From positions 1 to 21,823 of IMG/VR virus record IMGVR_UViG_3300021963_005402: a stretch of DNA of 21,823 nucleotides; one strand, 5' to 3'. Position numbers and translations under genes: made by a program. How positions within the stretch are numbered: the stretch's first letter is position 1; every line of letters begins with the position of its first letter. Under the pieces are notes generated by a model that was given only the letters and a program-made list of their open reading frames with translations, made no database searches and was not told where the DNA came from. The DNA is from a virus. Below, piece after piece: positions 1,037 through 20,071 of the stretch.

Positions 1037-1064
1037 CGTGTATATATCAATATTTATATATACG
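1037..1064 (+). promoter_or_regulatory. Hairpin containing the ATATTTATATA start-site motif
   Basis: Arms 1037-1046 and 1055-1064 pair over 10 bp with one G-U, around an 8-nt loop, ending two bases before the ATG at 1066. Its 3' half contains ATATTTATATA (1050-1060), 5 nt from the start codon. The same motif at nearly the same distance precedes the genes at 13961, 20074 and 18859 (minus). It may be a late-promoter -10 element or a translation element; the sequence alone does not decide. Confidence 0.45.
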
Positions 1065-1065
1065 A

Positions 1066-2877
1066 ATGAGCACAGATATAGAAATAAAATTAAAAGACTT
1101 ACAAGTTAAGTTAAAAGAAGTTGAAACTATAATGCCATTGCCATTTAGTCAACCTCTTAGAGAAAGTTTTCCGTTATATAGAATATTTGGTGAAAGTGGG
1201 GATTATTATCCAAAAGAAAAAGAAACTATATTAAAATGGATAAATTTGTCAAAAGAAATTGAAAAACTTTTACAAAATATTCAATCTTTAAATGACGCAG
1301 GTGCAACCAAATTACTTGAAAAAAGTTCATTATATCAAAACTACACAGATATAAAATCAAGAATTGAACTTGCATCCGGTACATCTGTTACATTAGCCAA
1401 TGTATATTCGTCAAAACCAAGTGGGTTTATTCATCAAGACATTAAAAAGTTTTATGATTCGTTTAATAAAAGCGGATATGCTAGTAAAGATAAGAAAAAA
1501 GAAAACACTGCGGATGTAGTATTGTTATATAATTGTAGCATTGCAGAAATTCAAACTGCATTAAAAGATAAGAATGTATCTGCTTTAGATGACAGTTTAT
1601 GTGAAATAACTGGTACTGGAAAGAAATTCGCAATGGTTTCTTTAAAAGCTGGTGGTGATAGTTATCGTATTGGAAGAATGAAAGGTGCATTTGATATTCT
1701 CCCGGATAAAGCAAGTTTTTCTGGCACACCTGCACAAAGAGAAAAATATTATCAATGGTTGCAATCTTTAAAACCAGATGAAACACCAAAAGTAGATGAC
1801 CCAAGAAAAGTATTTAGTGGCGGTGCTCCTATATTTGAAGAAATTTATGTTGGTAAGACATTACTAACTGAAATTGAATTTATATCATCATTAAAATCTT
1901 CTCTTAACAGAATTGCATCTAAGATAGGTGATGTATCTGCTGAATTAACAAAAGGATGGACAGACTTTACACAAAAAATTAAAAATACTATTGTTAAGAT
2001 ATTTGGCAATATAGAACAAAAGTGTCAAGAAGATTTAAATTATGCTAGAAGTAAACATTCTTCTTTATTCAATACTTGGGATGCGATTGAAAAAGAAATA
2101 GGAGTTTTACAAGAAGCAAGAGAATCAGATGAACAACCAGTAGAAATGACAGATTCTCTTAAAAAGAATGTAACTATATTTGTTCAACAAATCAATCGTA
2201 TTCAACCAGATTCTTTATTTAATGCTATTAATGAAAAAGTAAGATTGATTCAAAATAAAAATTTATTCGTAGTAGAACTTAATGGGGCTACTGCGGAAGA
2301 CGTAAAAGAAGTAAGAAACGCATCTTTAAAAGTTTATAATGATTATTTTAATCCTTCTACAAAAGGTGATGTTATCTTAAACAAAGGTGCATTTAGACCA
2401 ATGAATATTTTCAATTCTAATATTTCGGCTATTGCATTTTATGAAAAGTTCATAGATAGATTTATTAACATTGGTAATGAAACTCAAATTAAGAAAGAGT
2501 TCATACAATTTGCAAGTCAGATATCAGCTGAAGCAATTTTCGGTAATAATGATACTCTTCCTCTTATAGTATTTAATGGTAAGACAATTAACAGAATGGG
2601 AACCAAGAATGAATTTTCAAGTGGTAAGAAGTTAATTGACGCAAATGAAAATAAGAATTTTAGATTGAGTAAGTTTCAAGTTAGTAAAAATAAAGAAGGA
2701 ACATATTTCGTTGTATATTTATATATTATCTTCGACATAAGAGAAGAAGAAGATGGTGGAAAAGTAGAAGTAAAACCATTTTATTCTGCTATTGAATTAA
2801 GAAATGAAAGAGGAAGCAAGTTTTCTTTTAAAACAGAAATTCATCGTTCCAATCTAAGTGAAGAGGATGTATTTTAA
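1066..2877 (+). CDS. Phage protein of unknown function, 603 aa
   Basis: I do not recognise a family with confidence. The protein is soluble-looking, with coiled-coil-like charged stretches at both ends of its first 100 residues and again around residues 290-385, and no signal peptide or membrane segment. Around residues 148-194 there is a TADVVLLYN strand (Asp150) followed some 40 residues later by VSLK (Ser192-Leu-Lys194). That spacing resembles the Asp...(D/E)-x-K core of PD-(D/E)XK folds, seen in degenerate form in some phage virion proteins; this is only a suggestion. No Shine-Dalgarno precedes the ATG, which sits just behind a hairpin carrying the ATATTTATATA motif. Arg is nearly always AGA, a low-bias codon choice unlike gp32. 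It ends 2 bases before the next gene and is probably cotranscribed with it. A late or structural role is a guess based on the upstream motif. Confidence 0.8.
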   Translation: MSTDIEIKLKDLQVKLKEVETIMPLPFSQPLRESFPLYRIFGESGDYYPKEKETILKWINLSKEIEKLLQNIQSLNDAGATKLLEKSSLYQNYTDIKSRIELASGTSVTLANVYSSKPSGFIHQDIKKFYDSFNKSGYASKDKKKENTADVVLLYNCSIAEIQTALKDKNVSALDDSLCEITGTGKKFAMVSLKAGGDSYRIGRMKGAFDILPDKASFSGTPAQREKYYQWLQSLKPDETPKVDDPRKVFSGGAPIFEEIYVGKTLLTEIEFISSLKSSLNRIASKIGDVSAELTKGWTDFTQKIKNTIVKIFGNIEQKCQEDLNYARSKHSSLFNTWDAIEKEIGVLQEARESDEQPVEMTDSLKKNVTIFVQQINRIQPDSLFNAINEKVRLIQNKNLFVVELNGATAEDVKEVRNASLKVYNDYFNPSTKGDVILNKGAFRPMNIFNSNISAIAFYEKFIDRFINIGNETQIKKEFIQFASQISAEAIFGNNDTLPLIVFNGKTINRMGTKNEFSSGKKLIDANENKNFRLSKFQVSKNKEGTYFVVYLYIIFDIREEEDGGKVEVKPFYSAIELRNERGSKFSFKTEIHRSNLSEEDVF

Positions 2878-2879
2878 TT

Positions 2880-3488
2880 ATGAACACTAAACAAATATTT
2901 TTAGATGCTTTAGAAAAAGCAAGTACCGATATTGCTATTGAAAACGGTATTTTTGATATTTCTAAACAAGAACATATTGAAATACTCAGAGAACATCTAA
3001 TTGAATCAAATGTAGATGTAAATGTTATTACTCAATATCTTAATAAAATGGTTGAAGGTAAGTATCCAGAAAGACAAGCATACAATGCAAATGGTATTCT
3101 TGTAACATTTCCTACTCCAGAATATAAACAAAAAGCAATTGCTAGAGGTACTCACTTTGAAGAAAATCCTAGAAAAGGACAAACTAATGTGTTTGCTGGT
3201 GACGAACAACCAGAACAACCAGAACAAAATATTGAATTTGAACCACAACAAACTGCACCTGTTCAACAACCAGAACCAGTAAAAGAACCAAAAAGTGACA
3301 ATAGAACTCCGGAAGAAAAAGAATTAGATGCAGTTGCCATAGAAAAAGCATTGACTATGGAATATACATTAGAAGAAGCATTAAAATTAGGTTTTTATAA
3401 TAAAAGAAATAGTTGGTATGATACAACTGGTAACTTCGTAGGTAAACTATGGAATGTGAACGGTAAACAATTAATTATAAATAAATGA
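2880..3488 (+). CDS. Phage protein of unknown function with a Pro/Gln/Glu linker, 202 aa
   Basis: This is a two-part protein. The N-terminal region (about 1-95) is helical and ends in a segment with the wording TFPTPEYKQKAIARGTHF. A low-complexity linker (about 103-145) follows, with repeated PEQ units encoded by near-identical ccagaacaa repeats. The C-terminal region (about 155-202) contains an EALKLGFYNKRNSWYD stretch. No catalytic motif is visible and I do not recognise the family. It starts two bases after the preceding stop codon and its last four bases (ATGA) contain the next start codon, so it should be translationally coupled to its neighbours. Confidence 0.78.
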   Translation: MNTKQIFLDALEKASTDIAIENGIFDISKQEHIEILREHLIESNVDVNVITQYLNKMVEGKYPERQAYNANGILVTFPTPEYKQKAIARGTHFEENPRKGQTNVFAGDEQPEQPEQNIEFEPQQTAPVQQPEPVKEPKSDNRTPEEKELDAVAIEKALTMEYTLEEALKLGFYNKRNSWYDTTGNFVGKLWNVNGKQLIINK

Positions 3489-3868
3489 AGAATAAACAAT
3501 TATTGTGTACATTTACCAATTCTAAAGAATATACTAACATTCTTGAAGAAATAAGAAACTTTTATAGTATTAACGGTAAAATATTTGTATTGTGTAATAA
3601 CAACAATCCAAAAGAATTATACGTAACATATAACGTAGAATTAGATGGTAGCCAATCCAAATTTAAAAATACCATCAGTGTACATAGAAAAAAAGACACT
3701 AATACATTGTATACTTTGAACGCAATGAATAAATTAATTGCTGAAGAAAACGGTGGAGTTTTTGATAAAACATTTCAATTGGATTGGAATCTCTACAGAA
3801 ATTCAATTATTTTAACGGGGGACATATCCGTCAAAATTGTTCCCGTCAAAATTTTTGATATAATTTAA
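3485..3868 (+). CDS. Conserved-looking phage protein of unknown function, 127 aa
   Basis: A small alpha/beta protein without membrane segments or recognisable catalytic residues. The wording (LLCTFTNSKEY at the start, ELYVTYNVEL in the middle, SVHRKK and TLYTLNAMNKLI later) recalls a conserved hypothetical family in T4-like environmental phages, but I cannot name a function. The start overlaps the preceding stop as ATGA, implying coupled translation. The coding end contains an 11-bp direct repeat, ccgtcaaaatt, at 3828-3838 and 3843-3853. The homing endonuclease gene follows after a 38-bp AT-rich gap. Confidence 0.75.
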   Translation: MKNKQLLCTFTNSKEYTNILEEIRNFYSINGKIFVLCNNNNPKELYVTYNVELDGSQSKFKNTISVHRKKDTNTLYTLNAMNKLIAEENGGVFDKTFQLDWNLYRNSIILTGDISVKIVPVKIFDII

Positions 3869-3906
3869 TATAATTAATAAATTTTTATAGTTTTTTATTC
3901 ATATTT

Positions 3907-4833
3907 ATGTTTATTGATATTACTAATATGAATATAGAAATTGAAAATAAAATGTATGAATGTTTTTATGATAGGTCTAAAGATTATCCATATATTTTAA
4001 TAAACGATAATAAAAAATATTTTAAAAAATGTGATGGATGTGGAAATTTTCAATTGTATGGATTGAAATTAGATATGATTCGTCAAATAGATAAAAAATC
4101 TAAATGTAAATCTTGTAGAGATTATACTGGAGAAAAAAATCCTATGTATGGAAAGAAACATACATTAGAAGTAAAAGAAAAAATATCGTTGATAAATTCT
4201 GGAAGAATATTGTCCAACGAACATAAAGAAAAAATAAGTAATAAAATAAAAGGAAAAAATCATCCGATGTATGGAAAAAAACATACTGAAGATTCAAAAA
4301 ATAAAATAAGACATAAGCATTTGGGAAAAACAGGTTTAATTGGAATTAACCATCCAATGTACGGAAAACATCATAATATAAAATCAAAGTTAAAGATTAG
4401 TAAATCATTAAAAGGAAAAATGATTGGTGATAAAAATCCTTCAAAAAGACAAGATGTAAGAAATAAAATGAGATTAAGCAGAATAAATGATTTAAAGTCA
4501 AAATATGAAAAAATTGGACCTAATTACAATAGTAATGCATGTAAATATTTTGATAAAATAAATGAAGAATTTGGGTGGAATTTACAACATGCATTAAATG
4601 GTGGAGAGTTTTATATTAAAGAACTTGGATATTGGGTTGATGCTTATGATAAAAATAAAAATATTGTCGTTGAATATGATGAACCAAAACACTTCAATAT
4701 TGATGGTTCTTTAAAACAAAAAGATATTGATAGAATGATTAATATAATAAACTTATTAAAATGTGAATTTTGGAGATATGATGAAAGAAACAAAAAATTT
4801 CTTAAAATAAGTTTACAGGATTACAATCTGTGA
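3907..4833 (+). CDS. Free-standing homing endonuclease: zinc finger, NUMOD3 repeats, Vsr/EDxHD-like nuclease
   Basis: Domains in order: a Cys4 zinc-binding unit (Cys42, Cys45, Cys67, Cys70); three NUMOD3 DNA-binding repeats with the core NPMYGKKHT or HPMYGK(K/H)H at about 77-86, 118-127 and 148-157, plus a degenerate fourth near 176; then a C-terminal nuclease-like domain (about 225-308) with the pattern GYWVDAYD...VVEYDEPKH (Asp245, Glu256, Asp258, Lys261, His262). This fits Vsr-like or EDxHD phage homing enzymes better than GIY-YIG or classical HNH. Such genes cut an allele lacking them and spread by recombination, often beside essential replication genes; here it sits just before gp32. It is much richer in AAA codons than its neighbours, suggesting separate ancestry. 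No Shine-Dalgarno is present. Domain calls are firm; the exact nuclease class is less sure. Confidence 0.87.
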   Translation: MFIDITNMNIEIENKMYECFYDRSKDYPYILINDNKKYFKKCDGCGNFQLYGLKLDMIRQIDKKSKCKSCRDYTGEKNPMYGKKHTLEVKEKISLINSGRILSNEHKEKISNKIKGKNHPMYGKKHTEDSKNKIRHKHLGKTGLIGINHPMYGKHHNIKSKLKISKSLKGKMIGDKNPSKRQDVRNKMRLSRINDLKSKYEKIGPNYNSNACKYFDKINEEFGWNLQHALNGGEFYIKELGYWVDAYDKNKNIVVEYDEPKHFNIDGSLKQKDIDRMINIINLLKCEFWRYDERNKKFLKISLQDYNL

Positions 4834-4853
4834 TAATATGTATTTATTGATGG

Positions 4854-4882
4854 TTGACTTTACTTGAGTAAGTAATTATTAA
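4854..4882 (+). promoter_or_regulatory. Promoter for the gp32-like gene
   Basis: TTGACT (4854-4859), a 17-nt spacer and TATTAA (4877-4882) lie in the gap after the homing endonuclease. The same spacing recurs at four other sites in this window. Transcription would start near 4889, giving a leader of about 33 nt made almost entirely of the 16-bp tandem repeat. Confidence 0.5.
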
Positions 4883-4887
4883 ATTAT

Positions 4888-4919
4888 CAATTAACTAATT
4901 AAACAATTAACTAATTAAA
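4888..4919 (+). repeat. Perfect 16-bp tandem repeat at the gp32 start, possible autoregulatory operator
   Basis: Two identical, directly adjacent copies of caattaactaattaaa occupy 4888-4903 and 4904-4919, two bases before the ATG at 4922. The tract has no Shine-Dalgarno and little ability to fold. T4 gp32 is known to repress its own translation by binding cooperatively to an unstructured AT-rich leader at its start codon; this tract is in the same place and of the same kind, so an equivalent role is a reasonable inference. Confidence 0.6.
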
Positions 4920-4921
4920 AT

Positions 4922-5728
4922 ATGCTAGATATATCAAAATTGAAGAGTCGTTTGAACTCTCTAACAAACCAAGGCAACAAAACCAATCTAATTTGGAAAC
5001 CAAAGCCTGGTAAACAAGTGGTTCGTATCGTTCCCTACAAGTATCAACCTGATAATCCGTTTATTGAGTTGAAGTTCCACTATAATATCAATAACAAGAC
5101 TTATCTATCTCCTGACAGTTTCAATCGTCCTGACCCAATCGTTGAGTGGTCAAATCGTATGAAGAAGAATGGTAACAAGGAAGATTGGATTTTGGGACGT
5201 AAGTTTGAACCAAAGATGCGTACCTATGCTCCTATCATCGTTCGTGGTGAGGAAAATGAAGGTGTTCGTTTTTGGGGATTTGGTAAGAACGTCTATCAAG
5301 AAATTCTCAGTATCATCAGTGACGTTGATTATGGTGATATTACCGATTTGGTTAATGGTCGTGACATTGTAGTAGAATTCCGTACAGCAGAAGATTCTGG
5401 TAAGTCTTTCCCAGAAACTACAATTCGTGTCAAACCAAACGCAAGTGTCGCAATTGACCCTTCACAAAAGGAGATTTTGGCACAACAAACAAATATTCTG
5501 GATTTGTTCCCAGAATTTACTTATGACGAATTGAAGGAAGTAATGAACGCATGGTTAAATCCAGACGGTTCAATTCCATCAGAAGGTAGTGTAAACACTA
5601 TCGTTGATGACGAAGTTCCAACTCCTGCTCCAAAAGCAGCAGCACCAGCTAAGTCACCAACCGCTACTGCATCAAAATCAAATACTGACGATGTAGCAGC
5701 AGCTTTTGATAATTTGTTTAACAGTTAA
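4922..5728 (+). CDS. 32: Single-stranded DNA-binding protein, T4 gp32-like
   Basis: The protein coats single-stranded DNA during replication, recombination and repair. The N-terminal LKSRLNSLTNQ helix, the core stretches WKPKPGKQVVRIVPYK and VRFWGFGKNVYQEIL, and a Pro/Ala-rich linker (about 230-252) leading to an acidic end (DDVAAAFDNLFNS) match the gp32 plan: cooperativity segment, OB-fold core, acidic protein-interaction tail. The length, 268 aa, is somewhat below T4 gp32 (301). The protein contains no cysteine, so the zinc-binding Cys/His cluster of T4 gp32 is absent; its place is taken by a loop around SFNRPDPIVEWSNRM. Arg is mostly CGT, as expected of an abundant protein. It has its own promoter, tandem-repeat leader and a terminator directly behind it, so it can be made separately from uvsX. 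Confidence 0.9.
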   Translation: MLDISKLKSRLNSLTNQGNKTNLIWKPKPGKQVVRIVPYKYQPDNPFIELKFHYNINNKTYLSPDSFNRPDPIVEWSNRMKKNGNKEDWILGRKFEPKMRTYAPIIVRGEENEGVRFWGFGKNVYQEILSIISDVDYGDITDLVNGRDIVVEFRTAEDSGKSFPETTIRVKPNASVAIDPSQKEILAQQTNILDLFPEFTYDELKEVMNAWLNPDGSIPSEGSVNTIVDDEVPTPAPKAAAPAKSPTATASKSNTDDVAAAFDNLFNS

Positions 5729-5745
5729 AATAAATTGTTTGTAAT

Positions 5746-5774
5746 GGGGTGGTAGTATATATTACTGCCACCCC
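5746..5774 (+). terminator. Hairpin terminator after the gp32-like gene
   Basis: Arms 5746-5757 and 5763-5774 form a 12-bp stem (GGGGTGG outer part, one G-U pair) with a 5-nt TATAT loop, followed by a weak T-containing tail (tatttagttt). It lies 18 bases after the gp32 stop and 19 bases before uvsX. The poor U-tract suggests partial termination or an mRNA processing or stabilising hairpin, letting gp32 be expressed above uvsX. Confidence 0.7.
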
Positions 5775-5793
5775 TATTTAGTTTATAAAAGTT

Positions 5794-7999: not shown

Positions 8000-8005
8000 A
8001 TTATC

Positions 8006-8033
8006 TTGGTTTACAGAAAAAGTGTGGTATAGT
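8006..8033 (+). promoter_or_regulatory. Possible promoter for the replicative helicase
   Basis: TTGGTT (8006-8011), a 16-nt spacer and TATAGT (8028-8033) sit in the 57-bp gap before the helicase gene and would give a leader of about 17 nt. An overlapping reading, TTTACA (8010-8015), 17 nt, TGATTT, is weaker at the -10. The gap is AT-rich, so chance matches are likely. Confidence 0.35.
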
Positions 8034-8056
8034 GATTTTAAGTAAATTATAAATTT

Positions 8057-12903: not shown

Positions 12904-12909
12904 TATCAA

Positions 12910-13182
12910 ATGACACTAAAATTAGTATTGGGTATCGCATTCACGGTCCTATTTCTTTTAGGACCGTGTTTTCAATTAGGGAAGTTAATATCTGCAAAAG
13001 ATAGTAGAGGTGTAAGTGCGCCTGCATATTGGTTAAATAATATGGGTCAGATATGTGTTTTATGTTATGCATACTTGACACATTCTGGATTGTGGGTGTA
13101 TATTAACAGCATTGGTTCCATACTTTTGAACTGTTTTATATTATTTTTTATATGGTTATATGATAGACGAAAAATATTGTGA
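12910..13182 (+). CDS. Small three-helix membrane protein, PQ-loop (SemiSWEET / LAB_N)-like
   Basis: A 90-residue protein with three predicted membrane helices (about 4-24, 41-58 and 62-84) and a basic end (YDRRKIL). The segment GPCFQLGKLISAKDSRGVS, followed by a Trp-Leu-Asn-Asn-Met-Gly in helix two, resembles the triple-helix-bundle unit of PQ-loop proteins, such as bacterial SemiSWEET sugar transporters or the small N-terminal domain of lipid A disaccharide synthase-like proteins. The Pro19-x-x-Gln22 spacing is looser than the classical Pro-Gln pair, so the exact subfamily is open. It should act in the host inner membrane. It starts 6 bases after nrdB and its end overlaps the Mom-like gene by 23 bases, so the two are probably made together, though no functional link is known to me. 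Confidence 0.68.
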   Translation: MTLKLVLGIAFTVLFLLGPCFQLGKLISAKDSRGVSAPAYWLNNMGQICVLCYAYLTHSGLWVYINSIGSILLNCFILFFIWLYDRRKIL

Positions 13183-13708
13183 TACATCATTGGTTTATTT
13201 AAAACCATTAAATAAGAATATTGCAAAGAATCTGATTATTAAGAATCATTATACTCATAAATGGACTCTTTGCACTATTGCTTATGGCGTTTATTATAAA
13301 CAGTATATAGAAAGTACATTCTTTGGTGGATTTAATTCAAAATTAATTGGTGTATTAGTATATGGAAATGCTGTGGGGAGGAATGCTAGTACAAGTATAT
13401 CAGAATTACTTAATAATAATAATGTGTTAGAATTAACACGGTTATGGATTGAAGATGGATATGGTAAGAATATTGAAAGTTATTGTATTGCAGAATCATT
13501 TAGACAGTTAAACATAGATTTACCCCAGATTAAATGCGTATTGAGTTATGCGGATAGTGAAGTGGGACATACTGGAAAGATATATCAAGCTACTGGGTTT
13601 GTTTATCAAGGAGACAATTATATAGATGTAGCTTTGATGCCTAATTATAGTGTAAGTTTAAGTGGACCGCCAGATTATGATTGGATACATAGTAGAACTG
13701 TATATTAA
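13160..13708 (+). CDS. mom: Mom-like DNA adenine modification enzyme (GNAT-like acyltransferase fold)
   Basis: Resembles the Mom family, whose Mu phage member converts adenine in DNA to a bulky N6-modified form that blocks restriction enzymes. Visible family features: NHYTHKWT (29-36), GVYY (43-46), LIGVLVYGNAVGR (62-74), LELTRLW (90-96), a GYGKNIES segment (100-107), VLSYAD (127-132) and GKIYQATGFVYQG (139-151), ending in WIHSRT. The pattern is that of an acetyltransferase-like fold with the substrate His-Tyr near the start. The length of 182 aa is usual for phage members (Mu Mom is about 230). The start at 13160 lies inside the end of the preceding membrane protein gene and is the only Met before the conserved core. 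Phage genomes carrying such a gene probably contain modified adenines; whether this genome does cannot be read from bases alone. Confidence 0.75.
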   Translation: MIDEKYCDTSLVYLKPLNKNIAKNLIIKNHYTHKWTLCTIAYGVYYKQYIESTFFGGFNSKLIGVLVYGNAVGRNASTSISELLNNNNVLELTRLWIEDGYGKNIESYCIAESFRQLNIDLPQIKCVLSYADSEVGHTGKIYQATGFVYQGDNYIDVALMPNYSVSLSGPPDYDWIHSRTVY

Positions 13709-13726
13709 AAGAGGAAGACGCATAAT

Positions 13727-13942
13727 GTGGATAAGTTAAAATTGAAGATAGGTAGAACTTTTTGGCGGAAGAAAGAAAGCGGGAAACATAGATATATTAA
13801 ATTTATATCAAATAAAATAGAAAATAAGAAGTTGGTTAAGTCTCTTAAGCACCCATCCCGTCCCTACCCTATTATTGGTGGTTATAAAGAAGACATTCAG
13901 GAGATAAAAGTTGAAAATACCAATGAACAATCTTTTTTTTGA
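13727..13942 (+). CDS. Small basic protein of unknown function (GTG start), 71 aa
   Basis: I do not recognise this protein. It is strongly basic in its first half (Lys/Arg-rich, with TFWRKKESGKHRY) and has no Cys. Translation must begin at the GTG at 13727: a stop codon at 13706-13708 closes the frame upstream, no in-frame ATG precedes, and the overlapping ATG at 13725 leads to a stop after four codons. A purine stretch, agaggaag (13710-13717), lies about 10 bases before the GTG and could be the ribosome binding site, unlike the AT-only leaders around it. It follows the Mom-like gene by 18 bases and could be cotranscribed. An accessory role to the Mom-like enzyme is only a position-based guess. 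Confidence 0.6.
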   Translation: MDKLKLKIGRTFWRKKESGKHRYIKFISNKIENKKLVKSLKHPSRPYPIIGGYKEDIQEIKVENTNEQSFF

Positions 13943-13944
13943 TG

Positions 13945-13955
13945 ATATTTATATA
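13945..13955 (+). promoter_or_regulatory. ATATTTATATA start-site motif
   Basis: Exact copy of the 11-base motif, 5 nt before the ATG at 13961, just after the stop codon of the 71-aa gene. This copy is not part of a hairpin, so the sequence rather than the fold seems to be what is shared. See the copies at 1050, 20059 and, on the minus strand, 18863-18873. Confidence 0.45.
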
Positions 13956-13960
13956 GAAAT

Positions 13961-14623
13961 ATGAATATTACAGAATTTAAGAAACTAATAAAAGAATGTA
14001 TTCTTGAAACCAAAATCAAAAGAAATCTTAAGAATTTGGTAAAAGAATCAATAGAAGAGATTAAAATTGAAAAGGGTGAATCTCTTCATTACAAAATGGA
14101 AGAATTGTCTGAGGAAGTTAAAAAAGTATATAAAGATGCTGAAGTTACTTTGGATGACGTTGGATATTATAATGTATGTTCTTGTAATCCTCATCATTTC
14201 AAAATATACCCTATGACTGATAACAACTTCACTGTAACTTATATGAAAGATAATACTGATAGAATTAAAAAATTTAATCTTACATTTGAAAATCTAAAAG
14301 ATTTCATTGTTAATATACTAAAATCAACAATTGGAAACTATGTCCAAAAAGCCTTCAATAAGACTTCTGTAGATAGTACAGATAAAGAAGGTAAGACAGA
14401 AGAAGGTCCAACACATAAATTGGGAGAAAAAGTAAAGGTTGAAGACCAAGTAAAAGCTAAAGAAGACCAACCAGACCAACCATTAAAAACTGTTGAAAAG
14501 ATAAATAAACAAGTTGATCATAGTGTAAAAGGTGAAAAGGCTTCTTATAAGTATCCAAAACAAACTGATAAGAAATTGACTGTCAAACAAAAGACATTCA
14601 AGGGTAAATCAAAAAATAAATAA
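13961..14623 (+). CDS. Phage protein of unknown function with Lys-rich tail, 220 aa
   Basis: The first 35 residues form an amphipathic helix (MNITEFKKLIKECILETK and on) of a kind that opens many T4-like structural proteins, but I cannot assign a family. A compact domain (about 40-135) includes NVCSCNPHHF (Cys73, Cys75, His78, His79), a possible but unproven metal site. The last 85 residues are a disordered Lys/Glu/Gln-rich tail with repeated EDQ and KVE units and a very basic end. No signal peptide or membrane helix is present. It starts 5 nt after an ATATTTATATA motif and ends 4 bases before the next start codon. A virion or DNA-associated role is possible because of the basic tail; this is inference. 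Confidence 0.72.
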   Translation: MNITEFKKLIKECILETKIKRNLKNLVKESIEEIKIEKGESLHYKMEELSEEVKKVYKDAEVTLDDVGYYNVCSCNPHHFKIYPMTDNNFTVTYMKDNTDRIKKFNLTFENLKDFIVNILKSTIGNYVQKAFNKTSVDSTDKEGKTEEGPTHKLGEKVKVEDQVKAKEDQPDQPLKTVEKINKQVDHSVKGEKASYKYPKQTDKKLTVKQKTFKGKSKNK

Positions 14624-14627
14624 ATAT

Positions 14628-14945
14628 ATGAAAAATAAAATCGCATTGGGTTTGGCTGCATTTGTAGCACTTACCAATGTAAAAGCCGGTGATAGAGAAT
14701 GGGCAACTGTAGGTAAAGTATTAACTGGAGTTGCTGCTCTACATGTTGTGGAAAGAATAGTATGTCCTCCACAACCACAAGTGGTATATGTATCACAACC
14801 AGTAGTAGTTCAATCTGCTCCAGTTGTACAATATGTTCCACCTCAACCACAAGTTGTGTATTATCCACAACCTGTTTATTATTATCAACCAGCACCAGTC
14901 ATAGTTGTTCATGGACATTATCACGGTCACTGGCATAGACATTAA
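14628..14945 (+). CDS. Secreted Pro/Gln/Val-repeat protein with His-rich end, 105 aa
   Basis: A typical signal peptide (basic KNK, hydrophobic core, predicted cut after VKA at about residue 20) starts the protein. The mature part begins GDREWATVGKVLTGVAALHV, a wording I associate with small envelope proteins of some environmental Gram-negative bacteria. A repeat region follows with two copies of PPQPQVVY (about 47-54 and 71-78) and many Val-Tyr-Pro-Gln units. It ends in HGHYHGHWHRH, a likely divalent-metal-binding tail. There is no lipobox Cys at the cut site. It should act in the periplasm or at the host surface, perhaps altering the envelope during infection; function unknown. It is directly followed by a strong terminator and closes the 13.9-14.9 kb group. 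Transfer from a host is plausible. Confidence 0.72.
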   Translation: MKNKIALGLAAFVALTNVKAGDREWATVGKVLTGVAALHVVERIVCPPQPQVVYVSQPVVVQSAPVVQYVPPQPQVVYYPQPVYYYQPAPVIVVHGHYHGHWHRH

Positions 14946-14965
14946 CGATAAAGTAAAGTTTAAAC

Positions 14966-14998
14966 AAAAAACTGCTAGGTCAAACTAGCAGTTTTTTT
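14966..14998 (+). terminator. Strong rho-independent terminator
   Basis: A 13-bp stem (actgctag core, 14971-14978, against ctagcagt, 14985-14992, extended by A5/T5) with a 6-nt loop and a run of seven T (14992-14998). It is symmetrical enough to work on both strands. It separates the secreted-protein gene from the MoxR-VWA operon. Confidence 0.92.
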
Positions 14999-15008
14999 AT
15001 TTTTTGTG

Positions 15009-15037
15009 TTGACGGTTAGAAAAACCCGTGATAGATT
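15009..15037 (+). promoter_or_regulatory. Promoter for the MoxR-VWA operon, near-leaderless
   Basis: TTGACG (15009-15014), 17 nt, TAGATT (15032-15037). Transcription would begin near 15044, only about 6 nt before the ATG at 15050. It is isolated by the terminator 11 bases upstream, which supports a real promoter here. Confidence 0.6.
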
Positions 15038-15049
15038 GTTCTTCGTAAT

Positions 15050-16018
15050 ATGAAGAATAAATCGTCATTGAAACTCGTTACCGTAGACGCAAATAAAATC
15101 CAGTCCTTCATCAAGGATTGTGATAAACTCAAACCATCATCACTGGTGATGGATTCAATCAAGTGGAAGTATCTTGTACGCAGCGTAATGCGTGGTAAGA
15201 ACATTCTAATCGTAGGTCCAACTGGATGTGGCAAGACACTAGCTGCACAGACTGTAGCTAAAGCTCTGGAACGTCCTTATTTTTATTTCAATCTTGGTGC
15301 AACCCAAGATGCTCGTAGTGCTCTTATTGGTAATACCCATTACGATAAGAACACTGGTACTTATTTTAACGAATCTGCTTTTGTTAAGGCTATCAAGACT
15401 CCAAATGCGGTTATTTTGATGGATGAAGTAAGTCGTGCTCATCATGATGCATGGAACGTATTGATGACTGTACTCGATGACCTACAGAGGTATCTTCGTT
15501 TGGATGAAAAGAAGGACAGCGAAGTGGTACAAGTAGCTGAAGGTGTATGTTTCATTGGTACTGCTAACATTGGTAATGAATATACTTCTACCCGTGTAAT
15601 GGATCGTGCTTTGATGAGTCGTTTTCCTGTCAAGTTAGAAATGAGTCCATTGTCTAAGGAAGTAGAACTAAGTTATCTAAAAGAACGATTCAATATTACT
15701 GATTCGGCTCATTTGGATATTTTGAATGCGGTTGTTGAGATTGCTACTCATACCCGTGAACAAGTCAAGAGTGAGGATAGCAAGTTGAGTAATTTTATTC
15801 CTACTCGTTCTACCGTGGAAATTTCAGAATTAATCCTAGATGGATTTAATTTGCTTGAAATTGCCGAGACTGCCATTTATCCTAATTTTGCGATTGAAGG
15901 AGGTATGGACAGCGAACGGACCTATGTAAAACAGTTGGTACAGAAGTACATCAAGGTTGAATCTAAGGATACACTGTTTTCAGATCCTCTAGCTAAGTCT
16001 GAACAACCTCCTTTCTAA
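15050..16018 (+). CDS. MoxR/CobS-like AAA+ ATPase
   Basis: An AAA+ ATPase of the MoxR type, which remodels protein complexes together with VWA-domain partners. Visible: Walker A GPTGCGKT (56-63), a GATQDARSALIG segment after the first strand (83-94), Walker B VILMDE (121-126), sensor 1 TANIG (171-175), and the arginine-finger helix DRALMSRF (185-192). The length of 322 aa is normal. Phage copies are often labelled cobS, the cobaltochelatase subunit, but nothing here shows cobalamin synthesis, so I leave the symbol empty. It starts about 6 nt after its predicted transcription start with no Shine-Dalgarno. The HEXXH-VWA gene begins 31 bases after its stop and is its expected partner. Arg is largely CGT, suggesting good expression. 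Confidence 0.88.
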   Translation: MKNKSSLKLVTVDANKIQSFIKDCDKLKPSSLVMDSIKWKYLVRSVMRGKNILIVGPTGCGKTLAAQTVAKALERPYFYFNLGATQDARSALIGNTHYDKNTGTYFNESAFVKAIKTPNAVILMDEVSRAHHDAWNVLMTVLDDLQRYLRLDEKKDSEVVQVAEGVCFIGTANIGNEYTSTRVMDRALMSRFPVKLEMSPLSKEVELSYLKERFNITDSAHLDILNAVVEIATHTREQVKSEDSKLSNFIPTRSTVEISELILDGFNLLEIAETAIYPNFAIEGGMDSERTYVKQLVQKYIKVESKDTLFSDPLAKSEQPPF

Positions 16019-16049
16019 TAAATAAACAAAACATTGCCTGTCAAAATAT

Positions 16050-18110
16050 ATGAGTAATTATAGTGATTATTGGTTGGATGATACATATCAAGACGATTTT
16101 GATGATATTGATGATTCGTCTTCGGTAAACTTCAATCTGATTAAACTATCTGTAGCACGCCGTGCTGTCAGTAATTTCGTCAATATTTTGACAGGCAAGA
16201 ATGTTCCTGTTTATTTTACTGATGATGGAAGTATTAATTGTACAGATGGAAAAGCTGTTTATCTATCCGCAGATATTGTTGATAAACAAGATTTCGATCC
16301 TGCTGTAGGATTGGCCTTACACGAAGGAAGTCACGTTGTATTGTCTGATTTTGATTTGGTAAAGAAGATTTGGCAAACAGTTCCTAGGGAAGTATATGAT
16401 TTGGCTGAACCTCTTCAAGTATCCAAAGATGATGTTGCTAACCTAATTAAGAATTGTCTTAATTATGTGGAGGACCGTTATATTGATTATTATGTTTATA
16501 ATAATGCTCCTGGTTATCGTGGGTATTATATGGCATTGTATGATAAGTATTTTAACAGTCCTAAGATTAATGCAATGTTAAAGAGTAACTTGTATCGTGT
16601 ACCTTCTATTGAAAGTTATGAAGTTAGGATCATTAACTTCACTAATGAACACACTGATTTGGAAGCATTGCCAGGTCTTCGTGAAATTGCTACAGTAATT
16701 AATCTTTCCAATATTCAACGGTTGACTACACCAAAAGTTCGTTTGGAAGTTGCGATTGAAGTTGCAAAGATTATTCTAAAAAATATTACTGAGTATAAGA
16801 AAGACAAAAAGAGTGAATCTGGAGAAAGTAAACCAGGCAATGGTCTAGGTTCTTCTACTGAAGATTCTGATAAGACAGATGAAAATTCTATTGGTGGAGA
16901 AGAAATGACTAACAAGAGTTCATCTAGTAATAAGACGGATCAAAATGATGTAAAGAATGATATTGGAACTGATGATAAAGTTTCTGATAATAAGTCTAAA
17001 CAGATTAAGAAAGCTGTTCAGAAACAGAAAGATTTCTTGAATGGTGATATTAAGAAAAAGAAAGTTAATAAAAAAGATAAAAAACTTCTTGATGCAATTG
17101 AACAGAGTGGAATGACACTGGTAAAATCTGGTTCCGATTATATTAAATCTGATGGATATTATAGTGTAGACACTATTTTTGTAACTAGATTAACCAGAGA
17201 GTTGATTGATACAGATGTATTTCCTCTTAATTATCATGGATTTGACAGTAGTTATTATACACATATTTCTTCGGTACAAATTTGTCCAAATGTACAAAAA
17301 GCTGTAAATGCGGGATTAATTATGGGTGCAGCACTTGGTCGTAAACTACAGATTCGTAGTGAAGTAAACACTACCAAGTATATGCGCAAACCAGTTGGTA
17401 AGATTGACCGTAGAATCTTATCAGAACTATCTTTTGATAATGAAAATGTATTTCATATCATGGACGTTTCTAAATATAAGAATTCTTATATTCATATTAG
17501 TGTTGACGCTAGTTCTAGTATGAGAGGTGATAAATGGGAAAAGACAATGACCAGTGTTGTTGCTATTTGTAAAGCTGCTTCTATGATTGATAATCTTAGA
17601 GTATCTGTATCATTTAGAACTACATTTAGTACTTCTAGAGGATACAGTGGTAGTAATCCATATGTGGTTATTGCTTATGATTCTGCTGTAGATAAAATTA
17701 ATAAAGTTAAGAATTTGTTTCCATATTTGTATCCTGCGGGATGTACTCCTGAAGGTCTTTCATTTGAAGCAATTATGAAACATTTACCAAAAGCATCTCA
17801 AGATACTGATTATTATTTCTTGAATTTTAGTGACGGTGAACCCGCAATGAATTATACAACTCTTAATGGTGTTGCCGTTGGTTATAGTGAAGACAGTGCG
17901 GCTTTGCATACTAGGAAACAGGTCAATAAGATTCGTAATGAAGGATATTCTGTATTGAGTTACTTTATTAAGAGTGATGGTTTAAATAATCAAAAGGCTA
18001 TTAATATGTTCAAGACCATGTATGGAAAAGACGCTTCTTTTGTGAATCCCAAGAATGTTTTGGATGTTGCCAAAACTATGAACAAGATGTTTCTTGAAAA
18101 AAGTCATTGA
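16050..18110 (+). CDS. HEXXH metallopeptidase-like and VWA-domain protein, CobT-like partner of the MoxR ATPase
   Basis: Domains in order: an acidic N-terminus; a metallopeptidase-like helical domain with HEGSH (His91, Glu92, His95) and a downstream VEDRYID (Glu141) as a candidate third zinc ligand; a disordered Ser/Lys/Asp-rich linker (about 250-330); and a C-terminal von Willebrand A domain with a complete MIDAS metal site, DASSSM (Asp486, Ser488, Ser490), Thr566 in CTPEG and Asp595 in SDGEP. This combination resembles bacterial VWA/metallopeptidase proteins coded beside MoxR ATPases. The pair probably works as an ATP-driven complex whose VWA part recruits a target; the target and any protease activity are unknown. 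The length is 686 aa. The stop codon overlaps the -35 box of the next promoter. Confidence 0.84.
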   Translation: MSNYSDYWLDDTYQDDFDDIDDSSSVNFNLIKLSVARRAVSNFVNILTGKNVPVYFTDDGSINCTDGKAVYLSADIVDKQDFDPAVGLALHEGSHVVLSDFDLVKKIWQTVPREVYDLAEPLQVSKDDVANLIKNCLNYVEDRYIDYYVYNNAPGYRGYYMALYDKYFNSPKINAMLKSNLYRVPSIESYEVRIINFTNEHTDLEALPGLREIATVINLSNIQRLTTPKVRLEVAIEVAKIILKNITEYKKDKKSESGESKPGNGLGSSTEDSDKTDENSIGGEEMTNKSSSSNKTDQNDVKNDIGTDDKVSDNKSKQIKKAVQKQKDFLNGDIKKKKVNKKDKKLLDAIEQSGMTLVKSGSDYIKSDGYYSVDTIFVTRLTRELIDTDVFPLNYHGFDSSYYTHISSVQICPNVQKAVNAGLIMGAALGRKLQIRSEVNTTKYMRKPVGKIDRRILSELSFDNENVFHIMDVSKYKNSYIHISVDASSSMRGDKWEKTMTSVVAICKAASMIDNLRVSVSFRTTFSTSRGYSGSNPYVVIAYDSAVDKINKVKNLFPYLYPAGCTPEGLSFEAIMKHLPKASQDTDYYFLNFSDGEPAMNYTTLNGVAVGYSEDSAALHTRKQVNKIRNEGYSVLSYFIKSDGLNNQKAINMFKTMYGKDASFVNPKNVLDVAKTMNKMFLEKSH

Positions 18111-18135
18111 CATTTGAACGGATATAATATAAAGT
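18107..18135 (+). promoter_or_regulatory. Promoter overlapping the VWA stop codon
   Basis: TTGACA (18107-18112), 17 nt, TAAAGT (18130-18135). The -35 includes the TGA stop (18108-18110) of the gene before. It is identical in both boxes to the promoter at 21426 and would start RNA near 18142, right at a hairpin. Confidence 0.68.
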
Positions 18136-18141
18136 ATTTAC

Positions 18142-18190
18142 AAGGTTGAAGTTCAACCAGTAAACATAAACAAAACATAAAACTAAATAT
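18142..18190 (+). promoter_or_regulatory. Leader with 5' hairpin and AAACATAAAAC element
   Basis: A 6-bp hairpin (GGTTGA, AGT loop, TCAACC; 18144-18158) sits at the expected RNA 5' end. It is followed by an unstructured A-rich stretch with aaacataaac (18162-18171) and AAACATAAAAC (18173-18183) up to the ATG. The leader of the gene at 21517 has the same plan. A 5' hairpin could protect mRNA from decay while the open A-rich part serves as ribosome entry without Shine-Dalgarno pairing. Confidence 0.45.
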
Positions 18191-18574
18191 ATGAGTAATA
18201 AAAAGACAGACCGCAAGAATAAGACAAACCTAACCGTAACTTGGCCATCAAACGACACTTACTTTGGTGTAAGTGACTTGGCTAATCTCAATAAAGATTT
18301 TATTGCGATTACTCTACGAGTTCGATTGAAGAATGCTCTTGACGAGGGTGTAGTAACCCAAATTGGATCGGTTCATGGTGGTAAGGGTCGTCCAAAGCTT
18401 GCTTTCGCAATGACTCCTGTAACTGATGCAGCTATTAATTCTGCTCGTACTGCTGGAGTTGTATTGAATGATAAGTATGAAACGGTAAATGTTCTTGATG
18501 TAAAGGCTGAAACTGATACTGCGGGACATACTGAGGTTGAATCAACTTCAACCACTACTAAGGTAGTTGCTTAA
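18191..18574 (+). CDS. Small winged-helix-like DNA-binding protein, 127 aa
   Basis: The region about 20-85 reads like a winged helix: a short helix (GVSDLANLN), a basic recognition helix (TLRVRLKNALDEG), then a beta wing with VVTQIG, GGKGRPKLAFAM. I recall similar small proteins in environmental bacteria, without a function. The C-terminal 30 residues are Thr/Glu-rich and probably disordered. Its own strong promoter, structured leader, terminator and CGT-rich Arg use all suggest abundant expression, perhaps as a regulator or DNA-associated protein. The helix assignment is read from sequence pattern only. Confidence 0.62.
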   Translation: MSNKKTDRKNKTNLTVTWPSNDTYFGVSDLANLNKDFIAITLRVRLKNALDEGVVTQIGSVHGGKGRPKLAFAMTPVTDAAINSARTAGVVLNDKYETVNVLDVKAETDTAGHTEVESTSTTTKVVA

Positions 18575-18591
18575 TTAAGTATAATGCATAA

Positions 18592-18627
18592 AATGCCGTA
18601 TGGGTACTTATGTATTCATACGGCATT
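18592..18627. terminator. Bidirectional hairpin terminator between convergent genes
   Basis: An 11-bp perfect stem (AATGCCGTATG, 18592-18602, against 18617-18627) with a 14-nt loop. On the + strand it is followed by tattttttacc; on the minus strand by ttttatgcatt. It lies between the + gene ending at 18574 and the minus gene whose stop codon (18626-18628) overlaps its last bases. Confidence 0.85.
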
Positions 18628-18859
18628 ATTTTTTACCTATATATGGTTTTATTGGTTTTAGTTTTATAAATTCTTTTAAACTATAATAGTAGATAGTTAT
18701 ATCTTTGGGAAGTAATCTATTGATATCCACTTGAATTTTTATTTTAGTTCCGTATGATATTGGTTGATCCATTAAACTATCATACAAAGCAATTGTTGTT
18801 GAATCTACTTCGATGTAGTGATATACTTTCTGGGATGGATCTGGTTTTTTACATGTCAT
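18626..18859 (-). CDS. Minus-strand protein of unknown function, 77 aa
   Basis: This is the only convincing gene on the minus strand. The ATG is at 18857-18859 and the TAA falls in the shared terminator hairpin. No + strand gene occupies this interval, which would otherwise be a 298-bp empty gap in a tightly packed genome. The frame is open further upstream (to 18937), but that part lies under the start of the + gene and is its shadow, so I start at 18859. The protein has a charged start (MTCKKPDPSQK), a beta-rich middle (YHYIEVDSTTIALYD) and a basic end. I do not recognise it. Upstream on its own strand is ATATTTATATT four bases before the ATG, a one-mismatch copy of the motif found before three + strand genes. 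Confidence 0.58.
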   Translation of the reverse strand: MTCKKPDPSQKVYHYIEVDSTTIALYDSLMDQPISYGTKIKIQVDINRLLPKDITIYYYSLKEFIKLKPIKPYIGKK

Positions 18860-18862
18860 ACT

Positions 18863-18873
18863 AAATATAAATA
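18863..18873 (-). promoter_or_regulatory. Start-site motif copy before the minus-strand gene
   Basis: Read on the minus strand, ATATTTATATT lies 4 nt before the ATG of the 77-aa gene. The whole divergent gap is only 13 bp (18860-18872), so the motif also covers the bases just before, and the first base of, the opposite gene's ATG at 18873. Confidence 0.4.
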
Positions 18874-20054
18874 TGGGAAACGAATTTTTTGATGCTGGAG
18901 AGTTTGATTTTGATTTGGAGAAATCTAAATTTATCAAAAATATTGATTATTTGAAGAGTATGTCTGCGGAAGAACAGACATTTTATAAGAAGTGGGTTGA
19001 AGTTCAGACTTATGAAAATTATTTGAATAAATCTGGTGTAGCTAAAGCCAAGATTTGGACTCCTACAGATATTAATAATGTTGAATTGACTGTAAAAGAA
19101 ATTGAACAATTAAATCCTACAATTGTTCATGTACAAGCTGGAAGTCAATTTGAACAAGATTGGTTGATGTTAAGAGTATTTTGTCATACTATGGAGTATA
19201 CGCAGACGCCAGGTAGATTTATTAAATTATTGATTACTGATGGTAATTTAGACAATCCACGATATTTGGGTGCGGTAAGTATATCTAGCGATGTTATTGT
19301 TATTACTGATAGAGACAATTATATTGGATGGACTGCTGATAATAAGTTAAAAGATAAGAGGTTAGTACATAGTGCAATTGGTAGTTGTATTATGAGTACA
19401 CAACCATTTGGATATAATTTCTTGGGTGGAAAGATGGTAGCTGCGTTAATTACAACATCTAAAACTAGAGAAATCTGGAAGAAGTTATATAATGAAGAAT
19501 TGGTTGGAATGACTACAACTTCGTTGTATGGTAGTTATAGTATGTATAATAGTCTTAAATGGTGGCATAAATGTGGTTCTAGTACTGGTAAAATGATGAT
19601 TAAACCAGATGACAGTGTATATGAAGTATGGCATCAATGGATTAAAGATAATAAAGCTGACCAATATAATAAAGCAATGACTCAAAAGGAAGGAGTTAGT
19701 GGACCTGTAACTGGTGCTAAGACTAGGGTAATTAACATGATATTCCAGACATTAGGAATTAAAGCTAGTGATTATACACATGGGTATGAAAGAGGTGTTT
19801 ATTATAGTGCTTTTTATGAAAACACTAAAGAATTCTTACAAAGTAAGATTACAGAAAATGATCTTAAGATGAAAGAATTGTTTAAGAAAGATGTTCAAGG
19901 TGTAATAGACTGGTGGAAACCAAAAGCTATAGAAAGATATAAAAAACTTCATAGTGATGGTAATATAAAGTCAGATATACTATATTATAACAAAATGATA
20001 GGTATGACTTATGAAGATGCTAAATCAAAGTTTTTTAATGAAGTTGGACGATAG
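18873..20054 (+). CDS. DUF4338 (DruA)-like protein, 393 aa
   Basis: The central part (about 115-240) resembles the DUF4338 family: PRYLGAVSISSDV (129-141), DRDNYIGWT (147-154), a conserved KDKRLVHSAIGSCIM stretch, a Gly-rich LGGKMVAALITTS strand, then TTTSLYGSYSMYNSLKWW and CGSSTGKM (234-241). Members include DruA of the bacterial Druantia defence system and phage proteins of unknown role; the biochemical activity is not known to me. An acyltransferase-like (GNAT) reading is possible because the first segment resembles LIGVLVYG of the Mom-like enzyme here. The N-terminal 110 residues and C-terminal Lys-rich helices are unassigned. It starts 13 bases from a divergent gene, so its promoter must lie inside that gene, and it ends in the palindrome before the next start. 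Family assignment is by eye and uncertain. Confidence 0.6.
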   Translation: MGNEFFDAGEFDFDLEKSKFIKNIDYLKSMSAEEQTFYKKWVEVQTYENYLNKSGVAKAKIWTPTDINNVELTVKEIEQLNPTIVHVQAGSQFEQDWLMLRVFCHTMEYTQTPGRFIKLLITDGNLDNPRYLGAVSISSDVIVITDRDNYIGWTADNKLKDKRLVHSAIGSCIMSTQPFGYNFLGGKMVAALITTSKTREIWKKLYNEELVGMTTTSLYGSYSMYNSLKWWHKCGSSTGKMMIKPDDSVYEVWHQWIKDNKADQYNKAMTQKEGVSGPVTGAKTRVINMIFQTLGIKASDYTHGYERGVYYSAFYENTKEFLQSKITENDLKMKELFKKDVQGVIDWWKPKAIERYKKLHSDGNIKSDILYYNKMIGMTYEDAKSKFFNEVGR

Positions 20055-20071
20055 TTATATATTTATATAAC
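20054..20071 (+). promoter_or_regulatory. Palindrome containing the ATATTTATATA start-site motif
   Basis: gttatata-tt-tatataac is a perfect 8-bp inverted repeat that begins at the last base of the preceding stop codon and ends two bases before the ATG at 20074. It includes ATATTTATATA (20059-20069), 4 nt from the start codon, closely matching the arrangement at 1037-1064. Confidence 0.48.

What the first reader, a model, noticed from the sequence alone, without database searches (positions are those of the whole stretch)
1050..20069. ATATTTATATA lies 4-5 nt before four start codons
Exact copies at 1050-1060, 13945-13955 and 20059-20069, and a one-mismatch copy on the minus strand before 18859, all lie 4 or 5 nt from an ATG. 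The four genes are unrelated and unrecognised. If it is a -10 element like the T4 late TATAAATA box, the mRNAs would be leaderless; if not, it may be a ribosome entry signal. Two copies sit in hairpins and two do not, so the sequence itself seems to matter. TATTTATA is the reverse complement of TATAAATA, so an antisense late promoter is a further reading.
Basis: partly seen in the sequence, partly recalled or inferred. Interest (0 to 1): 0.72.

Follow-up and report, generated by a model that had tools for sequence, protein, structure and literature searches.

The report
Leaderless late promoter in T4-like phages
A short AT-rich DNA word just before certain phage genes appears to be the switch that turns on late genes, placed so close to the start codon that the messenger RNA would begin at the gene's first codon, which is unlike the textbook phage T4.

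Summary
ATATTTATATA lies 4-5 nt before four starts of the window; a further exact copy lies inside a gene. In the window plus 14 contigs of related uncultured phages (1514 distinct ATG starts), TATTTATA lies within 40 nt upstream of 142 starts (shuffles 21.0, max 36); its reverse complement is at chance (22 vs 20.2). The consensus is [AC]TATTTAT(A), without a -35 element; tail tube, sheath, fibre and connector genes are among those it precedes. Box-to-ATG distance peaks at 4 nt, mean 5.0 in the short class, so by T4 late-promoter geometry transcription would start at the A of ATG: leaderless mRNA. Boxes further away have more Shine-Dalgarno sites than box-less starts (21 of 45 vs 261 of 1362). 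Two isolates, Mel-JY01 and Flavobacterium phage immuto, have the box mostly further upstream. Some relatives encode an unannotated protein whose predicted fold matches T4 gp55. Best reading: a T4-type single-box late promoter of altered sequence (TATTTATA, not TATAAATA), giving leaderless late mRNAs. Ribosome-entry and antisense readings are not supported. No RNA 5' ends were mapped; late timing and the pairing of box and sigma-like protein are inferred. New variant of a known kind.

The parts
1050..1060 (+). late-promoter box (ATATTTATATA; core ATATTTATA 1050-1058), 5 nt before ATG 1066; lies in a predicted hairpin 1036-1065
   Evidence: present in 23 of 23 orthologues aligned from residue 1 (79-84% protein identity, many upstreams identical); the other 19 of 42 tblastn hits were partial and gave no comparable upstream
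1066..2877 (+). 603-aa gene led by the box, unknown function, no Pfam/PHROGs family
2715..2725 (+). exact copy inside gene 1066-2877, not before a start: probably chance
13945..13955 (+). late-promoter box, 5 nt before ATG 13961
   Evidence: ATATTTAT kept in 12 of 12 listed distinct orthologous upstreams (27.7-89% protein identity) at 3 to 19 nt from the ATG (which lists only hits aligned from residue 6 or earlier)
13961..14623 (+). 220-aa gene led by the box, unknown function
18864..18874 (-). late-promoter box on the minus strand (ATATTTATATT, read 18874 to 18864), 4 nt before minus ATG 18859; overlaps the ATG (18873-18875) of the plus gene
   Evidence: [AC]TATTTAT in 12 of 18 listed orthologous upstreams
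18626..18859 (-). 77-aa minus-strand gene led by the box
   Evidence: 18 listed orthologous upstreams at 30-88% identity; no Pfam/PHROGs family
18873..20054 (+). DruA-like protein (PF14236), divergent partner whose start codon overlaps the minus-strand box
   Evidence: E 9.4e-23
20059..20069 (+). late-promoter box, 4 nt before ATG 20074, in the predicted hairpin 20054-20071
   Evidence: [AC]TATTTAT in 12 of 12 listed orthologous upstreams
20074..20466 (+). 130-aa gene led by the box, unknown function
20463..20498 (+). sigma70-type promoter placed for a leaderless transcript: TTGACA 20463-20468, 17-nt spacer, TAAGGT 20486-20491, 7 nt, ATG 20499
   Evidence: such placement is enriched in the clade

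Best explanation
The word is the recognition box of a phage late promoter, consensus [AC]TATTTAT(A), of the T4 kind: one AT box, no -35 element, read by RNA polymerase with a phage sigma factor. It differs from T4 in two ways. The box is TATTTATA rather than TATAAATA, and it is usually so close to the gene that transcription would start at the A of the ATG, so most of these mRNAs would have no leader and be translated as leaderless messages. Shown by computation: orientation, enrichment, the consensus without a -35, the spacing, and the excess of Shine-Dalgarno sites where the box is further away. Inferred: that it is a promoter at all (no RNA data), the exact 5' end, late timing (from the gene content), and that the gp55-like protein is the factor that reads it.
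For: TATTTATA within 40 nt of 142 of 1514 starts against 21.0 in shuffles, reverse complement at chance. [AC]TATTTAT 208 starts against [GT]TATTTAT 12; in the last 18 nt 130 against 2. No position from -40 to -4 before the box rises above the null; T at -3 and A/C at -1 do. T4's own late region gives TATAAATA as top word in the same pipeline, 0 of 12 of them within 9 nt of ATG. Short class (d <= 9, 88 starts) has mean d 5.03, so the A of ATG is about 6 nt after the box, which is T4's +1 for a box at -13 to -6 (positions from PMC2988020, passages). At d >= 16, 21 of 45 starts have a Shine-Dalgarno word, against 261 of 1362 box-less starts (p 4e-5). Box-led genes include tail tube, sheath, fibres and a connector: 8 of 20 hand-picked. 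Box before immuto gp20, terL, sheath and tube and the Mel-JY01 tail tube. The gp55-like protein's top VIA-align match is T4 gp55, 7d7c_F, Z 10.8, rmsd 3.0 over 107 residues; the other listed rows are mostly sigma factors, and so are many named viral rows. Sigma70-type promoters in the clade are also placed for leaderless mRNA: 57 of 80 TTGAC at 28-33 nt have TANNNT ending 5-8 nt before ATG, against 322 of all 1514 starts.
Against: No transcript 5' end exists for any of these phages here. T4's nominal +1 would fall inside the ATG for d = 3-4, which are 44 of the 88 short cases, so the start would have to be 1-2 nt closer there. The lack of Shine-Dalgarno words in the short class (4 of 88) is no independent support: box-less starts with any 8-nt A/T stretch at the same place are about as poor (27 of 343, p 0.36). 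The gp55-like protein is found in only 3 of 32 contigs of relatives, not in the window and not in two 173-kb contigs, G001 and G017, that have the box; all are linear records, perhaps incomplete. LR756508 encodes a 42% homologue, yet in three stretches, 150 of 484 kb with 179 starts, TATTTATA is never upstream. PHROGs gp55 models hit 0 of 12 contigs. The model is moderate (pLDDT 77.6, pTM 0.46), Foldseek had no PDB match at E <= 0.001, and the tool warns that Z below about 13 can mean little for helical folds. Of 12 late genes printed for Mel-JY01 only three have TATTTAT, capsid and sheath not among them; of nine for immuto six do, gp23 not.
Confidence: 0.8

Rival explanations
1. The word acts in the mRNA as a ribosome-entry or translation-enhancing signal in place of a Shine-Dalgarno.
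For: It is most often 3-7 nt from the ATG, and few of these starts have a Shine-Dalgarno word (4 of 88). AT-rich start regions are liked by hosts that do not use Shine-Dalgarno sites (recalled).
Against: The same box in the same orientation also sits 16 nt or more from the ATG, with a Shine-Dalgarno word in 21 of 45 such starts, in one orthologue of gene 13961 (L157, GGAG) and in 4 of 13 printed Mel-JY01 cases (GGAG). The lack of Shine-Dalgarno at short spacing is shared by any A/T stretch there. The A/C-only base before the box suits recognition of DNA by a protein (inference).
Confidence: 0.06
2. It is a T4 late promoter (TATAAATA) read on the opposite strand, giving antisense late RNA.
For: ATATTTATATA contains TATAAATA on the other strand (sequence). 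At 18860-18872 the two orientations face two divergent genes.
Against: If TATAAATA were the active box it should precede genes in that orientation; it does so at chance level, 22 against 20.2 in shuffles, while TATTTATA has 142.
Confidence: 0.02
3. It is a promoter box, but read by a host alternative sigma factor or another phage protein, not by the gp55-like protein.
For: Most contigs searched lack the gp55-like gene (29 of 32), some of them long and with boxes (G001, G017); LR756508 has the gene without the box in the 150 kb examined.
Against: The contigs are linear records and may be incomplete; the longest of them, G020 (250 kb), has the gene. Both named relatives with the box, Mel-JY01 and immuto, encode it. 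A single-box promoter without -35 is the gp55 type (PMC2988020, passages).
Confidence: 0.15
4. It is a promoter, but the mRNAs carry a very short leader or start inside the annotated ATG, and translation begins at a later codon.
For: For d = 3-4 the nominal T4 start point falls inside the ATG (44 of 88 short cases).
Against: A start within the next 19 codons with its own Shine-Dalgarno exists in 1 of 88 short cases, against 39 of 1362 box-less. Orthologues of genes 1066, 13961 and 20074 align from residue 1 (20074 in the four close ones). The separate sigma70-type promoters show the same leaderless spacing.
Confidence: 0.12
5. Chance AT-richness of the gaps.
For: The gaps of the window are 78% AT.
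Against: 0 of 2000 shuffles in the window, 0 of 300 in the clade; strand asymmetry; top word also in contigs of 41-42% GC, G019 and G017.
Confidence: 0.01

Closest known systems
T4 late promoters (TATAAATA; gp55, gp33, gp45)
   Same: Single 8-bp AT box, no -35 element, before virion genes; a protein with gp55-like predicted fold in some relatives; a gp45-type clamp in one.
   Different: Box TATTTATA, not TATAAATA; usually 3-7 nt before ATG, leaving no leader; the gp55-like protein is not recognised by PHROGs, Pfam or NCBIfam models.
T4-like cyanophage late promoters (NATAAATA in S-PM2)
   Same: Late box of gp55-encoding T4-like phages (PMC2984593, passages).
   Different: Two central bases differ (TT for AA); the passages seen do not speak of leaderless spacing.
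phiKZ and AR9 non-virion polymerase late promoters
   Same: phiKZ late promoters use TATG with G as start point; the AR9 paper remarks that phage transcripts are often leaderless (PMC5312081, passages).
   Different: Those phages encode their own multisubunit polymerases (PMC5312081, passages); none was looked for here, and the box is different.
Leaderless mRNAs of mycobacteria and other bacteria
   Same: The start codon is the 5' end of the message (recalled; PMC4633059 seen only as title and start of abstract in listings).
   Different: Host genes, not a phage late regulon; the host of this phage is unknown.

Membership tests
T4-type late promoter | box consensus TATAAATA (perfect at 32 of 50 T4 sites, PMC2988020) | tested here: not met
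   The box is [AC]TATTTAT(A), 2 of 8 bases different; TATAAATA is at chance upstream
T4-type late promoter | no conserved -35 element | tested here: met
   No position from -40 to -4 before the box exceeds the 99.9 percentile of the null in 88 starts
T4-type late promoter | located before virion and other late genes | tested here: met
   8 of 20 hand-picked box-led genes are virion families, 2 endonucleases, 1 a family of unknown function, 9 without family; immuto gp20, terL, sheath, tube
T4-type late promoter | transcription starts about one helical turn downstream of the box (box at -13 to -6) | not testable with these tools
   No RNA data; spacing agrees with a start at or next to the ATG
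gp55 late sigma family | sigma region 2 fold close to gp55 | tested here: met
   Model residues 1-112 to T4 gp55 7d7c_F, Z 10.8, rmsd 3.0, 107 residues, first of 50 rows; caution: helical fold, moderate model, Foldseek E 1.2 for the same chain
gp55 late sigma family | sequence membership (phrog_234, phrog_12791, Sigma70_r2) | tested here: inconclusive
   phrog_234 and phrog_12791 0 of 12 contigs; PF04542 2 of 12, below the cut-off
gp55 late sigma family | binds the sliding clamp and reads the late box | not testable with these tools
   needs biochemistry
T4-type late system | gp45 clamp encoded | tested here: inconclusive
   phrog_223 in 1 of 12 contigs, G002, E 9.6e-13; the ORF next to it looks like a clamp loader by eye (not tested)
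T4-type late system | gp33 co-activator encoded | not tested
   not searched

The most novel reading that the evidence does not exclude
A widespread uncultured lineage of T4-like phages has re-tuned the T4 late system (new box TATTTATA, diverged gp55) and moved both its sigma70-type and its late promoters onto the start codons, so that much of its gene expression runs on leaderless mRNA. In some genes the box also sits inside a hairpin next to the ATG, so that early read-through RNA would be folded shut while late RNA, which starts after the hairpin, is open.
Probability: 0.47. Interest if true: 0.75.

Novelty: new variant of a known kind. Interest (0 to 1): 0.61.

Why it matters
It gives a readable late-gene signal for a large group of uncultured phages with few recognisable genes, so late regulons could be called from sequence alone. 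It would be a case where the T4 late system changed its box and gave up the leader, which makes two questions testable: how gp55 specificity evolves, and how a phage translates its virion genes without ribosome-binding sites.

Tried and rejected
Rejected: ribosome-entry signal and antisense TATAAATA promoter (see rivals). Hairpin as the general feature: not the rule over box-led starts. Lack of Shine-Dalgarno at short spacing as proof of leaderless mRNA: withdrawn after the A/T-stretch control; I lowered the main confidence slightly for that. Host: a scan of genome contigs with the UvsX-like protein confirmed no relative, so the host is unknown. gp55 by PHROGs models: none in 12 contigs; the gp55-like family by PDB sequence profile: only unrelated weak matches; by Pfam and NCBIfam: nothing convincing. 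LR756508 as a further relative: no box in 150 of 484 kb. Foldseek against PDB gave no match at E <= 0.001, though many of its rows are sigma factors. Literature: searches for TATTTATA with phage and promoter (3 papers, none on phage promoters by title), leaderless with T4-like, phage and sigma factor (none), leaderless with phage, late promoters and transcription start sites (one), Mel-JY01 (none) and others showed in their listings no report of this box; the library holds only open papers and I read passages of three.

Limits of the counts: starts come from my own simple ORF caller (ATG starts only, one start per ORF); contigs are related, so counts are not independent events, although single contigs show the same (TATTTATA at 0-9 and 10-27 nt: G001 15 and 17 against TATAAATA 1 and 3; G017 7 and 4 against 0 and 0). 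Of the 21 long-spaced starts with a Shine-Dalgarno word 7 are from one contig, G025. A first version of that comparison (16 of 35) had left some long boxes out through its window; one search counts all. The 20 box-led proteins were chosen by hand from the rows, with a lean towards large ones, and two were partial because of a piece boundary; repeats in the fibre-like proteins inflate their scores.
Full report
What the window is. The 21,823-base record is a linear virus record of IMG/VR, probably a fragment. Its genes lie almost all in one direction; among them are a RecA/UvsX-like recombinase, a DnaB-like helicase, ribonucleotide reductase subunits, a MoxR-type ATPase and a DruA-like protein (ORFs; PF14236; the other names from relatives or recalled). 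Relatives are abundant in IMG/VR: the best 80 loci kept for the recombinase are 83-92% identical and the best 80 for the DruA-like protein 42-92%. The first rows among named phages by helicase are an uncultured 484-kb phage LR756508 (44%), Microcystis phage Mel-JY01 (42%) and Flavobacterium phage immuto (38%).

The observation. One further exact copy lies inside gene 1066-2877. In the window alone the count is far beyond shuffles: 4 of 23 upstreams with ATATTTATA, mean of shuffles 0.117, 0 of 2000 reach 4.

It is a clade-wide signal. In a first set of eight sequences ATATTTATA has 119 sites, 48 within 10 nt and 29 at 11-30 nt upstream of a start on the same strand; the reverse complement has 8 and 2. 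Before 616 distinct starts CTATTTAT, ATATTTAT and TATTTATA head the list of enriched 8-mers. In 15 sequences with 1514 distinct ATG starts, TATTTATA lies within 40 nt of 142 starts against 21.0 (sd 4.4, max 36 of 300 shuffles); TATAAATA 22 against 20.2; within 9 nt, 88 against 6.2 (max 16). ATATTTAT or TATTTATA is the top upstream word in 7 of the 9 relatives whose list was printed, including two contigs of 41-42% GC; in G021 a Shine-Dalgarno word and in G025 another word come first, and in Mel-JY01 and the first 100 kb of immuto other words do. The T4 late region, run the same way, returns TATAAATA, 12 upstream against 5 TATTTATA.

The consensus. The base before TATTTATA is A (68) or C (20) in all 88 short cases, whereas genome-wide it is A 183, T 97, C 48, G 36. 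[AC]TATTTAT occurs within 40 nt of 208 starts, [GT]TATTTAT of 12; in the last 18 nt 130 against 2. Apart from T at -3 (65%), no position back to -40 rises above the null. So there is a single box and no -35 element.

Distance and leader. Distances peak at 4 nt (35 of the 142); the short class (d <= 9) has mean 5.03. In T4 the box spans -13 to -6 (PMC2988020, passages), which puts +1 six bases after its end; here that is, on average, the A of the ATG. For d = 3-4 the start would have to be 1-2 nt nearer than T4's. A Shine-Dalgarno word is found in 4 of 88 short, 2 of 19 middle (10-15 nt), 21 of 45 long (d >= 16) and 261 of 1362 box-less starts. The excess in the long class (p 4e-5) fits a ribosome site that appears when the predicted mRNA has room for it, though a third of it comes from one contig. 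The low figure in the short class proves nothing by itself: box-less starts with any 8-nt A/T stretch 3-7 nt before ATG have 27 of 343 (p 0.36).

The same box at other distances. For gene 13961 all 12 listed orthologous upstreams keep ATATTTAT while its distance runs from 3 to 19 nt; L157, with the box 18 nt away, has GGAG between. In Mel-JY01 TATTTATA has 14 upstream sites, 11 of them at 27-52 nt (TATAAATA 2), the tail tube gene among them with GGAG between; 4 of 13 printed cases have GGAG. Of 12 Mel-JY01 late genes printed only the tube, terL (with G before the box) and the gene at 19327 have TATTTAT. In 50 kb of immuto's virion region TATTTATA has 10 upstream sites (TATAAATA 3), 8 of them at 16-25 nt; of nine late genes printed, six have TATTTAT (gp20, terL, sheath, tube, phoH, one structural) and gp23, a fibre and one other do not. 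In immuto's first 100 kb the 11 sites lie 3 at 0-9, 7 at 10-27 and 1 further. This is what a promoter does and what a ribosome signal does not.

Which genes. Of 20 hand-picked box-led proteins of G018 and G001, eight match virion families (tail tube, sheath, fibres, connector, structural), two endonucleases of homing type, one a family of unknown function, nine nothing. In the window the box leads four unknown genes.

Early-type promoters show the same habit. TTGAC is sharply placed 29-33 nt before ATG (80 cases); 57 of the 80 have TANNNT ending 5-8 nt before ATG, most often 6 nt (33 of 57), against 322 of all 1514 starts. Gene 20499 of the window is one. Two promoter types both placed for leaderless mRNA support the reading, and suggest that the host translates leaderless messages well (inference). 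The host is unknown.

The likely reader of the box. Weak Sigma70_r2 hits in two relatives led to a protein family with 201 matching stretches in IMG/VR, also in Mel-JY01, immuto and LR756508; the copies in Mel-JY01 and immuto are annotated as hypothetical, LR756508 has no annotation. Its AlphaFold2 model (pLDDT 77.6, pTM 0.46) has T4 gp55 (7d7c_F) as top VIA-align match, Z 10.8, rmsd 3.0 over 107 residues, followed mostly by other sigma factors; viral rows include a Campylobacter phage late sigma factor and a Klebsiella phage sigma-like factor. The tool warns that such Z values are not strong for helical folds. The profile finds the protein in 3 of 32 contigs of relatives, including the longest, G020; the window and two 173-kb contigs do not show it, and LR756508 has it without the box in the part examined. 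So the pairing is plausible but not shown.

A divergent overlap. At 18860-18875 the minus-strand box runs into the start codon of the DruA-like plus gene. In several relatives the plus gene has, by eye, a TTGATT/TATACT-type promoter across the same bases. The two promoters could hardly be used at once, which would make a simple early-to-late switch (inference).

Verdict. A T4-type single-box late promoter with a changed box and leaderless spacing. By letter of consensus it is not a T4 late promoter (TATAAATA not met), but it appears to work like one. Phage leaderless transcripts are not unheard of: the AR9 paper says phage transcripts are often leaderless (PMC5312081, passages). The new part is the altered box, its possible link to a diverged gp55 and the genome-wide leaderless placement.

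Noticed in passing
window 18860-18875: Divergent promoters overlap: the late box of minus gene 18859 runs into the ATG of plus gene 18873, and several relatives show by eye a sigma70-type promoter for the plus gene across the same bases: a possible early/late switch.
   Followed up: partly
window 1036-1065 and 20054-20071: Two boxes sit in predicted hairpins that end 0 and 2 nt before ATG. In distant orthologues of gene 20074 the arms differ (TTTACTAT/ATAGTAAA, CTTACTAT/ATGGTAAG) yet could still pair around TTATT (by eye). Could silence early read-through RNA, as known for some T4 late genes (recalled).
   Followed up: partly
Flavobacterium phage immuto NC_055915, first 100 kb (L253, L254): A second upstream word, ATATTTAG, often followed by GTATCAATAATTAA, 18 times before starts, 17 of them 21-30 nt away, reverse 2: probably another promoter class.
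   Followed up: no
G025 (L221-L226): Recurrent TTTTCGTATATTTACTATGTAAAT before genes: another candidate promoter or operator.
   Followed up: no
Mel-JY01 PP395634 (L208-L211): AACAACCTAACAGGA-like word before several starts, unexplained.
   Followed up: no
window 13160-13942: ORF 13727-13942 matches only the C-terminal part of a Mom-like DNA modification family (phrog_1384); the ORF before it, not scanned, may hold the rest, so the gene may be split.
   Followed up: no
15 clade sequences: Shine-Dalgarno words are rare: 9-22% of starts in 13 of 15 sequences (G025 29%, G021 36%), against 64% in the T4 late region.
   Followed up: partly
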